Assembly: GCA_030619765.1 (NCBI GenBank) | Contig: JAUXAU010000001.1 | Location: 24,704 to 88,703 of the forward strand | Length of the DNA: 64,000 nt | Reading direction: 5' to 3' | Source of the DNA: Thermoplasmatota archaeon | Lineage (GTDB): Archaea; Thermoplasmatota; E2; DHVEG-1 | In this document: positions 28-9,378 of the stretch, piece after piece | Position numbering within the stretch: the first letter of the stretch is position 1 | Layout of the letters: each line of letters begins with the position of its first letter | Notes under the pieces: model-generated | What the model saw: only the letters and a program-made list of their open reading frames with translations | Databases searched by the model: none | Told to the model about the DNA's origin: nothing | Program-made: the position numbers and the translations under genes

Positions 28-678
28 ATGACAACTGCCAAAATGAAGATGGGTAAAATTGTAGAGGATCTGACATTGTATCCAAGAAACAAGATAAATC
101 CGTACAATGTCAGTCAAATGAGAGAATCTTTAAGAGCCGGACAACGACTTCCGGTAATTTTGGTTGATCAGCAAAATAGATGTGTTGATGGGATTCACAG
201 ATTGCGAGCTATGAAGGCAGAATATGGTGCCAATGTAGTTGTCTCTGTTCATGTTAAAAAGTATCAAGATGATAGTGAGTTTTTTTGTGACGCAATGGAA
301 ATGAATTCCAGGCATGGATTTCAATTAACTATTTGGGATAGGGTTAAATGTTTAATACAAGCACAGGATATGGGTATTCCGCTTGATTCTGTTTCAAAGA
401 GTTTATCAATAACAACTGAAAAAGCTGAATCATTGCTTAAAAGACAGAGTGAAGAAGGTGTTCCTTTAAAGTGCGGGATGGATCATTTCAGTGGAAAGAA
501 GATGACATCAGAACAAGCCAGTTTTAATAATGGTGATGCAAGTGGAAAGATGACACTTTTTCATGTCAATCAATTGATAAAAAAGATTGAGACTGGAAGC
601 ATTGAGGATACAGAGAATGTTCATGCTGGTTTGAAAAAGTTGTATGGATTGATTCACGTATTTTTGGAGGAGGCTTAA
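28..678 (+). CDS. ParB/Srx-fold N-terminal-domain-like protein
   Basis: ORF with SD aggagg; motif pattern NPYNVSQMRESLRAGQRLPVILVDQQNRCVDGIHRLRAM resembles the ParB N-terminal (ParB/sulfiredoxin) domain. Confidence 0.7.
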   Translation: MTTAKMKMGKIVEDLTLYPRNKINPYNVSQMRESLRAGQRLPVILVDQQNRCVDGIHRLRAMKAEYGANVVVSVHVKKYQDDSEFFCDAMEMNSRHGFQLTIWDRVKCLIQAQDMGIPLDSVSKSLSITTEKAESLLKRQSEEGVPLKCGMDHFSGKKMTSEQASFNNGDASGKMTLFHVNQLIKKIETGSIEDTENVHAGLKKLYGLIHVFLEEA

Positions 679-679
679 T

Positions 680-1399
680 ATGACAGATGGAGAAAGAGCT
701 GCATGGAAGATGTACGTGAAATCGTTTTATGATGCTCAGAGAAAGCGAATAGACTATGCAAACAGGCTTCATAAAAAGAAAAACAATGATTCAACCAAGG
801 GTGAATATAAAGAGTTGCCGTTGGCGGATAGGCTGTTGTTTGAGGATTTGTTAAAGAATCATCAGGATATAGAGAAGGTGATACTCAAAGCTATGTGTAA
901 AAAGCTTGAAAGTGTACCTATTTGGAAAGAGTATCTAAAAGATGTTCCTGGTGTAGGACCAACAATGGCTGCTTTAATCGTTTCAGAGTTTGACATTGAG
1001 AAATGGATAACTGTGAGCAAAGGATGGAAGTTTGCTGGTTTACATGTTGAGAATGGAAAAGCACTAAAACCCATTAAGGGTGAGAAACTTTGCTGGAACA
1101 AGTTTTTAAGATCAAAACTTTTAGGAGTTTTGGGGCCAAGTTTTCTTAAGTGTAATAGTCCGTATCGAGAGTACTATGACAACATGAAACATCGATTAGA
1201 GTCTAAGAATTGGGGTGTTGCAAGTAAGAATCCCACAGATAAAAGTAGACCAAAGGCGGGACATCAACATAATGCTGCAATACGCTACATGGTTAAGATG
1301 TTTCTCAAAGATCTTTATGTTGCTTGGCGTACTTTAGAGGGATTGGATGTAAGGCCTCCGTACAATGATGAGTATGGGAATGGGCATCATAGTGAATAG
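680..1399 (+). CDS. IS110-type transposase C-terminal (Transposase_20/HhH)-like protein lacking the N-terminal DEDD domain
   Basis: LKDVPGVGPTMAALIVSEFDIEKW...KFAGL...KFLRSKLLGVLGPSFLKCNSPYREYYDNMKHRLE...HNAAIRYMVKMFLKDLY matches the order of motifs in IS110 C-terminal domains; only 239 aa. Confidence 0.6.
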   Translation: MTDGERAAWKMYVKSFYDAQRKRIDYANRLHKKKNNDSTKGEYKELPLADRLLFEDLLKNHQDIEKVILKAMCKKLESVPIWKEYLKDVPGVGPTMAALIVSEFDIEKWITVSKGWKFAGLHVENGKALKPIKGEKLCWNKFLRSKLLGVLGPSFLKCNSPYREYYDNMKHRLESKNWGVASKNPTDKSRPKAGHQHNAAIRYMVKMFLKDLYVAWRTLEGLDVRPPYNDEYGNGHHSE

Positions 1400-1425
1400 A
1401 TGTGACTTTTATGGTCACGTGCCAT

Positions 1426-2244
1426 GAGAAAACCATAACCGACAAGCGAGCCACATTTTAGGAGAAAACCAGTAGGAGGAAGCGCGTCAATTTTCTTAAG
1501 GAAACCATGCCAGAGAAACGAGTCAGACAATCAAAGAAAACCAAATCTGATAAGCGAGTCATCTTGGACAAGAAAACCACTGAGCACAAGCGAGTCGTAT
1601 CATTTGAGAAAACCAGAGTGAAAAAGCGAGCCATTGTTTGAGAGAAAACCGTTGAGTGGAAGCGTGCCGAAAAGTCAAAGGCATCCATGTTTTATAGCGA
1701 GCCACTGTGTAGGAGAAAACCAGCATGAATAAGCTAGCCATGTCGAGCGAGAAAACCAATGGCAGTAAGCGAGTCACGAAACCAAAGGAAGCCAAAAGGT
1801 GAGAGCGAGCCACGGACAGGAAGAAAACCACCCAAGAAAAGCGAGTCAGAGGGTTAAAGGAAACCAAGAAGGGCAAGCGGGCCAACTACATTGAGAAAAC
1901 CAGATAAGAGGAGCGAGTCATCCCGGGCAAGAAAACCACTCTGCACAAGCGAGTCAAAGAGTAAAAGAAAACCAGATATCTGAAGCGAGTCACGCAGTCC
2001 AAGAAAACCAGAAGAAGTAAGCGAGTCATAAGCAGCGAGAAAACCATGAAAGGAAAGCGAATCAAATTAACAAAGAAAATCAAGTCGCATAAGAGAGCTA
2101 CACTGTAGAAGGAAACCAGAATGGGAAAGCGAGCTAGTTGGCAAAAGAAAACCATATCAGCAGAGCGAGTCATTAAAGTAAAGAAAACCATGAATGAAAA
2201 GCGAGCCGAGAGACGGAAGAAAACCACAGGATTTAAGCGAATTT
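1426..2244. repeat. Phased alternating array: 46 x (10-bp block + 8-nt variable spacer), two block types alternating
   Basis: A blocks AAGCGAGYCA start at 1444,1480,1516,1552,1588,1624,1660,1695,1731,1767,1803,1839,1875,1911,1947,1983,2019,2055,2091,2127,2163,2199,2235; B blocks RAGAAAACCA start 18 bp before each A block (first at 1426). Only one 1-nt slip, between 1660 and 1695. Confidence 0.97.
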
Positions 2245-6845: not shown

Positions 6846-9378
6846 GATATCACAGGAAATAATTGATGCAGGTGGTGTTGCTGGTCGTAGGTTGACTGAA
6901 GCTGCTAAAAAGGCAGTAGAAAGACCTGGTCGGAAACCAAAGCAAGTTAAAAGCAACTGTGAGATTTGTGGTCTGGGAGAAACAAGTGTTTCTGATAGTG
7001 GTGTGCGCAGAAAAAAAGTTGTTAGCGTGCATTCTAAAGATGTAAGAATAATGCTGATTGCAGAATCTCCAGGAAGTGTAGAAATTGAGCGTAATGAACT
7101 ACTTGTAGGACCTGCTGGACAACTATCAGATAGGATTTTAGAAGATGGGAATCTTCCTAGGGGAGATGTTTTTGTTGCAAACATTTTGAAATGTCGCCCA
7201 TTAAATGACAGAGATCCTAAACCTAAAGAAATTAAAGCTTGCTTTCCTTTTTTGCTTGAAGAAATTCGTAAAGTAAAGCCTATAGTGATAATGCCACTTG
7301 GATCTCCTGCACTTAAAGCAATAACAGGCCTGACAAGTATTGAGCGTTGGGCAGGAAAAAGACTTTATTCAAGGATATATAACTGTTGGATCATTCCAAT
7401 GATTCACCCAAGTGCCATTCTGCGTAGAAAGCATCAAACTTTTGACAGTATTTTAGAATGGGACATGTTAGACTACAAGATATCTGTTAAGGCAGTGAAA
7501 GCAGCAAAGAAAAGTCAACATGCTATGAGAAGAATTTTAAAAGTTGATAAGAGATTGGTGGCATCAAAAGAAGAAGCGGCAATGTATTGTAGGCTATGTA
7601 AACAGGCGAAAGCATTTGCATTCGATTTTGAAACATACTTTGAGTTCAGTGAGTATATGAAGAAAGGTCTTACAAATTTCCCTGGGGATAAAATTGCTAA
7701 AGGTTTGGGGCTTTGTCGCCAGCCTGGCTTTGCAGTGTATATTCCAGAAGAGTTTCTTGATAAACAAATGTTAATGGATTTGTTTAGTTCTGAGAATATA
7801 AAAATTGCACACAACTTTAAATTTGATCAAGATGTGGCAGCTGAGCTGGGTATTGAAATAAAGGGAAAGCGGTTTGACACTATGCTTGCACATCATCTTA
7901 TAGATGAGAACCTGCCACATGGATTGGATGATCTTGAATGGGTGTATCTGGATAAGGGTGGCCGATTGAATGTTGCAGATGAGTATTATGATACACCTTA
8001 TTGGGATTCCATTTCACAAGAAATAATGTGTGATTATTGTTGTGATGACTGTGAAAGCGCATTTTTGTTGTTTGAGAGATTTCAAAAGATTCTAAAAGAA
8101 CAGCAACTTGATTATGTGTTTGAGAATATCTCTATGCCTTTAATTGATGTTGTCTCCAGTATGGAAAAGAATGGAGTGTATATAGATCAAGAAAAAACAC
8201 AACGGTTATCTGATTGTTGCACTGAGATTGCTGAGTTAGAACAAACTGTTGTTCACAATGCTGCTGGTGGAGAATTTAATATCAACTCTGGTCAGCAACT
8301 TGGGAATGTCCTCTACAAGAAACTTCGTCTGCCGGCAAAAAAGACTCCAAAAGGTAACTGGAAAACAGATGCTGATACTCTTGAGAATCTTATCCCATTT
8401 GATAAATCAAATATTATAAATCATGTCCTGGCTTATAAGAAGCAAAAAAAGATATTGTCAACTTATTGTAATCGCATCAAGAGAATGTTAAAGGATAGTG
8501 GAGATGGGAGAGCTCATTTTAAATATGTACAGCATGGAACTGTAACTGGAAGATTGTCCAGTGGCTTCCATCAATTCCCACGAGACAAGATGATAAGAGC
8601 TCAAATAGCTGCACCTCTTGGAAGGAAACTTATATCAACAGATTTTGAACAGATTGAACTTCGTATTGGTGCACTTATGTCAGGTGATAAAGAGTTGTTA
8701 AGAGCTTTTGAAACAGGTGAAGATATTCATAGATTTATAGCTGCACAAATTTATGAATGTTCTTTGGATGAAGTTACTGATGAAATGCGAACTAATGCTA
8801 AACGATTTGACTTTAGTGTATTCTATGGCGCTGGTGTGGGTTTAATTGTAGAATATTTTGGTGTAAGCCTTGAGAAGGCTCAGAAGTTGTATGATGCATT
8901 TTTTAATAGATTTAGAAGAGTGAAAGAATGGGCTCAAGAGCAATACGATTTTGTGAGTGAAATGAAATTTGTTGTTGATATTTTTGGTAGACGCAGACGA
9001 TTACCTGCAATAGATAGTGAAAATGAAGGATTCAGGGCAGAAGCAGAAAGGCAATCGATAAATAGCCCGGTTCAGGGTGGGGCTTCTGATTGTGCATGTA
9101 TTGCTTTAATAAGACTTTATGATCGTATCAAGAGAGAAGAATTAGATGCAAAGATTATTGCGTTTATTCATGATGAAATTATTCTTGAGGTGGATGATAG
9201 TATATCAGATTATTGTTGTAAGCTCGTTAAAGAAGAATGTGAGAGGCCAATTCCTCAAATTGATGTTCCTCTTAAAGTGGACATAAATGTTGTGCAGAAT
9301 TGGTGGGATGATCATGAATCTGGCACAAGATGGGATGAATATAAGGATGTAGAAAAGTTGAAAAAATTCTGGAGGTAA
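6820..9378 (+). CDS. polA-like: Family-A DNA polymerase with N-terminal family-4-like uracil-DNA glycosylase domain
   Basis: N-term CEICGL..MLIAESPGSVE..GPAGQLSDRIL..NILKCRP..PLGSPALKAITG (UDG); middle FDFET 3'-5' exo; C-term STDFEQIELRIGAL..RTNAKRFDFSVFYGAG..IHDEIILEV (PolA). TTG start. Confidence 0.88.
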   Translation: MARVIKRSEISQEIIDAGGVAGRRLTEAAKKAVERPGRKPKQVKSNCEICGLGETSVSDSGVRRKKVVSVHSKDVRIMLIAESPGSVEIERNELLVGPAGQLSDRILEDGNLPRGDVFVANILKCRPLNDRDPKPKEIKACFPFLLEEIRKVKPIVIMPLGSPALKAITGLTSIERWAGKRLYSRIYNCWIIPMIHPSAILRRKHQTFDSILEWDMLDYKISVKAVKAAKKSQHAMRRILKVDKRLVASKEEAAMYCRLCKQAKAFAFDFETYFEFSEYMKKGLTNFPGDKIAKGLGLCRQPGFAVYIPEEFLDKQMLMDLFSSENIKIAHNFKFDQDVAAELGIEIKGKRFDTMLAHHLIDENLPHGLDDLEWVYLDKGGRLNVADEYYDTPYWDSISQEIMCDYCCDDCESAFLLFERFQKILKEQQLDYVFENISMPLIDVVSSMEKNGVYIDQEKTQRLSDCCTEIAELEQTVVHNAAGGEFNINSGQQLGNVLYKKLRLPAKKTPKGNWKTDADTLENLIPFDKSNIINHVLAYKKQKKILSTYCNRIKRMLKDSGDGRAHFKYVQHGTVTGRLSSGFHQFPRDKMIRAQIAAPLGRKLISTDFEQIELRIGALMSGDKELLRAFETGEDIHRFIAAQIYECSLDEVTDEMRTNAKRFDFSVFYGAGVGLIVEYFGVSLEKAQKLYDAFFNRFRRVKEWAQEQYDFVSEMKFVVDIFGRRRRLPAIDSENEGFRAEAERQSINSPVQGGASDCACIALIRLYDRIKREELDAKIIAFIHDEIILEVDDSISDYCCKLVKEECERPIPQIDVPLKVDINVVQNWWDDHESGTRWDEYKDVEKLKKFWR

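What the first reader, a model, noticed from the sequence alone, without database searches (positions are those of the whole stretch)
28..2244. ParB-like gene + stand-alone IS110-C-terminal-like gene + phased array as one candidate system
The array starts 27 bp after the IS110-like stop codon. The 239-aa protein shows the IS110 HhH/Transposase_20 motif order (VPGVGPTMAALIVSEF, KFAGL, LRSKLLGVLG, NSPYREYY) but lacks the RuvC-like DEDD half, and where IS110 proteins normally have the catalytic Ser-Gly after the AGL motif I read NGKALKPIKG. This suggests a repurposed DNA-/RNA-binding protein rather than an active transposase. IS110 enzymes are known to use a bridge RNA; whether the array is an RNA partner here is speculation.
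Basis: partly seen in the sequence, partly recalled or inferred. Interest (0 to 1): 0.85.

Follow-up and report, generated by a model that had tools for sequence, protein, structure and literature searches.

The report
Phage TIGR-TasA guide-RNA system with ParB
A bacteriophage carries a TIGR-Tas system, a recently described RNA-guided DNA-binding system whose short guides come from a repeat array, here next to a ParB-like DNA-clamp gene; this exact gene combination was reported in 2025, so it is a good new example of a known kind rather than a discovery.

Summary
The system is published: TIGR-TasA with tasParB (Faure et al. 2025, PMC12045711). The 239-aa protein is TasA: NCBIfam TIGR_Tas 158 bits against a cut-off of 100, best solved relatives TasR and TasH, predicted fold closest to TasR/TasH and next to IS110. 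The array is a dual-repeat TIGR array of 23 units of 36 nt: edge RAGCGAGYCA, 8-nt spacer A, loop RAGAAAACCA, 8-nt spacer B, with truncated edges at both ends. The 216-aa protein has a ParB/Noc/KorB fold. Nearly all relatives examined carry such an array. ParB-linked TasA cluster in the tree; their arrays keep an extra fixed purine (23/23 versus 5/37 loci). Guide targets were sought in the phage contig, 2.2 Mb of its bin and 1.2 Mb of related loci: none stood clearly above mispaired controls. Likely mechanism: tigRNA-guided, non-cleaving DNA binding, with ParB as partner. New member of a known kind.

The parts
28..678 (+). tasParB: 216-aa ParB-like protein (N-terminal ParB/sulfiredoxin-like domain with DGIHR motif, central helix-turn-helix-type region, C-terminal helix)
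   Evidence: AlphaFold2 model pLDDT 93; Foldseek: Noc 7ol9 6.5e-6, ParB 6sdk 1.3e-5, KorB 8qa9 5.3e-5; PHROGs ParB-like only weak, 2e-3; 27 Tas-linked homologues aligned
680..1399 (+). tasA: 239-aa solo Nop-domain Tas protein without nuclease domain
   Evidence: NCBIfam NF052498.1 158.3 bits, cut-off 100; TasR 9mty E 2.4e-21, TasH 21kl E 1.6e-13; fold: TasR 2.5e-10, TasH 3.6e-9, IS110-family ISCro4/IS621 about 2e-3
1413..2240 (+). dual-repeat TIGR array, 23 tigRNA units of 36 nt: edge RAGCGAGYCA / 8-nt spacer A / loop RAGAAAACCA / 8-nt spacer B; one irregular unit near 1667-1713
   Evidence: unit table and column counts; 36-nt register
1413..1417 (+). 5'-truncated first edge repeat (GGTCA); it also overlaps one arm of a small inverted repeat GTGAC...GTCAC
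   Evidence: sequence
2235..2240 (+). 3'-truncated last edge repeat (AAGCGA) followed by an A and a T run; no terminator-like hairpin found here, and the DnaB-type helicase gene starts at 2262
   Evidence: terminator scan; helicase PF03796

Best explanation
This is a phage-borne TIGR-TasA system of the tasParB type. The array is transcribed, probably together with tasParB, tasA and the downstream replication genes, and cut within the edge repeats into 36-nt tigRNAs. A TasA dimer holds one tigRNA by its two CCA/box-C and box-D-like motifs. Spacer A then pairs with one DNA strand and spacer B with the other, so a 16-bp site reading A + reverse complement of B is opened and sharply bent. TasA has no nuclease, so the complex binds without cutting. 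TasParB most likely acts with it at that site, as a partner that stabilises, spreads from or bridges the bound DNA, so that the site is blocked or repressed. The likeliest targets are competing mobile elements. Shown here: identity of the three parts, the array anatomy, conserved linkage and one clustered set of ParB-linked TasA. Inferred from published TasR/TasH/TasA work: processing, RNA binding and tandem-spacer DNA binding. Inferred only: the functional ParB partnership, the silencing role and the nature of the targets (silencing of other mobile elements about 0.4).
For: TasA identity. Array anatomy identical to the published description (two alternating 8-12-nt repeats, truncated edges at both ends). 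FpTasA bound 36-nt RNA from its own array, and TasR/TasH use the two spacers on opposite strands: PMC12045711. ParB-tasA operons and their 10-nt repeats are described there. Relatives: 36-periodic dual-repeat arrays parsed beside 59 of 83 distinct tas loci, and motif chains of 4 or more alternating repeats in most of the re-examined loci that had seemed array-less. ParB fold. ParB-linked TasA cluster together, 27 of 29 rows of one group, 2 changes on the tree against 23 expected by shuffling. ParB-linked arrays share the extra fixed purine, 23/23 versus 5/37 (Fisher p 4e-12, not corrected for kinship).
Against: No target was identified: self-search of the 88.7-kb contig, 2.19 Mb of the bin and 1.22 Mb of related loci gave nothing clearly above mispaired spacers. 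The bin is archaeal while the contig is a bacterial-type phage, so the true host genome was not tested. Nothing shows that ParB binds TasA or its targets. The 8-nt spacers give only 16 bp, and array transcription and processing were not measured here.
Confidence: 0.85

Rival explanations
1. Self-regulation: the tigRNAs point at the phage's own genome, and TasA-ParB is a programmable repressor, replication or packaging organiser for the phage itself. The locus sits at the head of the replication gene block.
For: The array is followed within 22 nt by DnaB helicase, primase, a sigma-region-4-like protein and PolA genes with no terminator-like site between array and helicase.
Against: No spacer pair matches the 88.7-kb contig above mispaired controls. 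The neighbours of tasParB-tasA-array differ among relatives, so replication-gene linkage is not conserved.
Confidence: 0.15
2. Maintenance or partition: TasA-tigRNA takes the place of a fixed parS and loads ParB for segregation of a plasmid-like prophage or for inheritance bias.
For: ParB fold; persistent tasParB-tasA linkage; TasR drives plasmid loss rather than blocking entry in E. coli (PMC12045711).
Against: No ParA gene was recognised among the proteins profiled, and no own-genome targets were found; partition would need sites on its own genome.
Confidence: 0.12
3. A decayed IS110-like insertion beside an unrelated tandem repeat.
For: Weak Transposase_20 similarity; IS110 NCBIfam match of 18.5 bits against a cut-off of 140.
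Against: Intact conserved ORF, TIGR_Tas equivalog above cut-off, and the same array type beside nearly all relatives, across distant phages and archaea.
Confidence: 0.01

Closest known systems
TIGR-TasA with tasParB operons (Faure et al. [quoted passage not shown] S14)
   Same: Operon of parB-like gene and tasA, dual-repeat array next to it, 10-nt edge and loop repeats
   Different: Individual sequence only; 23 units is longer than the most usual 5-15. Two things not stated in the parts of the main text I read: the ParB-linked TasA cluster in the tree, and the fixed purine is shared by all their scored arrays.
TIGR-TasA of Flavonifractor plautii (FpTIGR)
   Same: Solo Nop-domain Tas protein, dual-repeat array, 36-nt units
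   Different: FpTIGR has 18 nt of spacer in all (9+9); the window has 8+8. No ParB is mentioned for FpTIGR in the text read.
TIGR-TasR and TIGR-TasH
   Same: Nop domain, closest solved structures (9mty, 21kl), tandem-spacer array
   Different: They carry RuvC or HNH nucleases and cut DNA; the window protein has none
IS110 family transposases (IS621, ISCro4) with bridge RNA
   Same: Similar C-terminal/Nop fold; RNA-guided
   Different: No DEDD domain, no transposition machinery, array instead of a single bridge RNA
ParB / Noc / KorB
   Same: Fold and GxHR-type motif in the N-terminal domain
   Different: No ParA partner recognised; linked to TasA instead; CTP binding untested
Type IV and V-M CRISPR (non-cleaving interference)
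   Same: Proposed functional analogy (made in PMC12045711): guide-directed blocking of other mobile elements without cutting
   Different: Unrelated proteins; repeats and spacers far shorter; two spacers per guide

Membership tests
TIGR-Tas (TasA) | Nop-domain Tas protein | tested here: met
   NF052498.1 158 bits over cut-off 100; Foldseek TasR/TasH top hits
TIGR-Tas (TasA) | Adjacent array of two alternating 8-12-nt repeats with short (typically 9-nt) spacers, 36-nt unit | tested here: met
   23 units, 10+8+10+8; 16 nt of spacer in all is also reported for SpTIGR
TIGR-Tas (TasA) | Truncated edge repeats at both array ends | tested here: met
   GGTCA at the start, AAGCGA at the end
TIGR-Tas (TasA) | Rho-independent terminator after the array (typical, not required) | tested here: not met
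   None found by pattern scan; described as typical only, so it does not exclude membership
TIGR-Tas (TasA) | No nuclease domain (TasA rather than TasR/TasH) | tested here: met
   239 aa; no RuvC/HNH Pfam match; model covers coiled coil plus Nop only
TIGR-Tas (TasA) | Processing to 36-nt tigRNAs and RNA-guided DNA binding | not testable with these tools
   Needs RNA sequencing and binding assays
tasParB | ParB-fold protein in an operon with tasA | tested here: met
   1 bp between the genes, fold, same linkage in relatives
tasParB | 10-nt repeats in the array | tested here: met
   Purine before AG in all 44 repeats scored
IS110 transposase | N-terminal DEDD/RuvC-like domain | tested here: not met
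   No Pfam match to PF01548; protein too short
IS110 transposase | Full-length IS110 family score | tested here: not met
   18.5 bits against cut-off 140
CRISPR-Cas | 25-36-nt repeats with similar-sized spacers, and cas genes | tested here: not met
   10-nt repeats, 8-nt spacers; no defence-library hit for the two proteins scanned; the wider window was not scanned for cas genes
ParABS partition | parA next to parB, and parS sites | tested here: inconclusive
   No ParA among the proteins profiled, but not every ORF was scanned; parS not sought

The most novel reading that the evidence does not exclude
TasA-tigRNA acts as a programmable parS: it marks any 16-bp site and loads the TasParB clamp there, which then spreads or bridges DNA, so that a phage can silence or tether chosen DNA by RNA-guided ParB loading. 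The single clustered set of ParB-linked TasA and its distinct repeat form (extra fixed purine, 8-nt spacers) would then reflect a ParB-specific version of the complex.
Probability: 0.2. Interest if true: 0.85.

Novelty: new member of a known kind. Interest (0 to 1): 0.3.

Why it matters
TIGR-Tas is a young family of compact, motif-free RNA-guided DNA binders whose natural role and targets are unknown (PMC12045711). This locus adds a clean, long TasA/tasParB example in a tailed phage. With its relatives it indicates that ParB was recruited to TasA few times, probably once, and that the recruitment goes with a different array format. That makes the ParB question experimentally sharp.

Tried and rejected
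Target search with the published geometry (A + reverse complement of B, gap 0-2) and the opposite geometry in the 88.7-kb contig: not above mispaired controls. Same in 2.19 Mb of the bin, for the window array and for the second Tas array on contig C96: no signal. Same for about 2,000 neighbouring spacer pairs from the relatives against 1.22 Mb of related loci: overall null. One class, loop-centred 8-nt pairs with at most one mismatch, gave 42 hits against 26.4 +/- 5.7 in nine mispaired sets. It is one of several classes looked at and its hits are scattered, so I do not claim it. Decayed IS110 next to an unrelated repeat: rejected. CRISPR: rejected on repeat format. Reading the bin as the host: rejected, because its ribosomal RNA is archaeal while the contig carries bacterial-type RecA, PolA, DnaB and DnaG. 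A padded BLAST of three mycobacteriophage spacer-pair targets gave no match, but 18-nt matches are near the E-value limit, so this says little.

Full report
What is there. Two same-strand genes, 28-678 and 680-1399, are followed by a regular array to about 2240 and then, from 2262, by phage replication genes: DnaB-type helicase, DnaG-type primase, a protein with sigma region 4, and later a UDG-PolA protein, RecA and ribonucleotide reductase. The window is bases 24704-88703 of an 88.7-kb contig that also encodes portal, terminase-like, minor head and tape-measure proteins, so it is a tailed phage.

The array. Laid out in register it has 23 units of 36 nt: edge RAGCGAGYCA, 8-nt spacer, loop RAGAAAACCA, 8-nt spacer. 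The repeats are near-invariant and the spacers look random. The array starts with a 5'-truncated edge (GGTCA) and ends with a 3'-truncated edge (AAGCGA). One unit near 1667-1713 is irregular by one base. No terminator-like hairpin follows, so co-transcription with the helicase operon is plausible but not shown.

The proteins. The 239-aa protein matches NCBIfam NF052498.1 (TIGR-Tas) at 158 bits, cut-off 100, and IS110 at only 18.5 bits, cut-off 140. Its best solved relatives by sequence are TasR 9mty (2.4e-21) and TasH 21kl (1.6e-13). Its predicted structure (pLDDT 90) is closest to TasR and TasH, then to IS110-family recombinases. No nuclease domain is found, so it is TasA. The 216-aa protein has no Pfam match, but its model (pLDDT 93) matches Noc, ParB and KorB, so 'ParB-like' is right.

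The known system. The TIGR-Tas paper (PMC12045711) describes exactly this: Nop-domain Tas proteins with dual-repeat arrays, processed to 36-nt tigRNAs whose two spacers pair with opposite DNA strands, and a parB-like gene, tasParB, in operons with tasA, with 10-nt repeats. The finding is therefore a new member of a published kind.

Relatives. Scans gave 11 and then 80 viral loci (87 confirmed in the second scan, best 80 kept) and 7 loci from bacterial or archaeal genomes. Of 83 distinct tas loci, 59 have a parsed 36-nt array within 1.5 kb. Most of the loci that seemed to lack one show, on a motif search, chains of at least four alternating edge/loop motifs 18 nt apart, mostly right beside tas; in L067 the chain lies about 6 kb away, and L070, L081 and L088 show no convincing chain.

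ParB linkage. A tasParB homologue was found at 27 of the 81 loci placed in the tree. The ParB-linked ones fall in one group of 29 rows (27 with ParB), needing 2 changes against 23 for shuffled labels, with the window at its base. In all 23 scored ParB-linked loci the base before AG in both repeats is a purine in at least 94% of repeats; only 5 of 37 other loci reach 90%. The Fisher p of 4e-12 ignores kinship, and since the group is clustered the effective number of events is small. Other neighbours are not conserved.

Targets. From the published cut geometry I derived the target as spacer A followed by the reverse complement of spacer B (my derivation from the 8-nt 3' overhang and the C-5 rule). 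Searches of the phage contig, of 2.19 Mb of the 3.17-Mb bin and of 1.22 Mb of related loci found nothing clearly above mispaired controls. One class showed 42 against 26.4 +/- 5.7, noted but not claimed. The bin's ribosomal RNA is archaeal, so it is probably not the host of this bacterial-type phage, and the negative result is weak evidence about true targets.

Mechanism. Best supported is non-cleaving, tigRNA-guided DNA binding by a TasA dimer with TasParB as partner, used most likely against competing mobile elements. Identity and anatomy are shown here; processing and tandem-spacer binding are carried over from published relatives; the ParB role and the targets are inference.

A side observation worth follow-up: about 74 cultured Mycobacterium smegmatis phages carry the region of a TasA homologue, often unannotated or called transposase, with stem-loop guide-like units in the gap upstream; in the seven compared, stems are conserved and spacers differ between phages. 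In the held library the only paper that holds both 'TIGR-Tas' and 'mycobacteriophage' is the TIGR-Tas paper itself, where the word stands only in the title of a cited review.

Noticed in passing
L095 2660-2990 and L242-L247 (Mycobacterium phages Rufus, ConceptII, Snazzy, Rajelicia, Corvo, Bircsak, Barriga): TasA homologues (Rufus gp73 scores 232 bits to TIGR_Tas), annotated hypothetical or transposase, with about five stem-loop units upstream of form CCA + 9-nt spacer + CG..CCA loop + 9-nt spacer + CG; stems conserved, spacers hypervariable between phages. 74 cultured phage records have the region.
   Followed up: partly
L006 3849-6774 (contig C96 of the window's bin): A second Tas protein (294 aa, TIGR_Tas 138 bits, no nuclease found) with 36-nt arrays on both sides (32 and 11 units parsed), on a contig with archaeal TFIIB and Alba genes.
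   Followed up: partly
whole window / contig C16: The bin's rRNA operon is archaeal, but this contig is a bacterial-type tailed phage; probably mis-binned (GC 36.9% against a median of 35.6%).
   Followed up: partly
L096 4653-4985 (Microcystis phage Mvi-JY20): Cultured phage with TasA (193 bits) and an unannotated dual-repeat TIGR array (ACGAAACCC / ATGCGAGCC) directly downstream. No self-target with at most 3 mismatches in the first 100 kb, using approximate spacer boundaries.
   Followed up: partly
L097 3515-3935 (Rhodococcus phage Peregrin): TasA homologue (206 bits) with stem-loop units upstream having stems of 17-25 bp.
   Followed up: no
L017 7249-12709: Very long TIGR arrays on both sides of a tas gene in a 216-kb viral contig.
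   Followed up: no
window 1403-1418: Small inverted repeat GTGAC...GTCAC between the tasA stop and the array, overlapping the truncated first edge.
   Followed up: no
window 7051-9375: Uracil-DNA-glycosylase-type domain fused to family A DNA polymerase.
   Followed up: no
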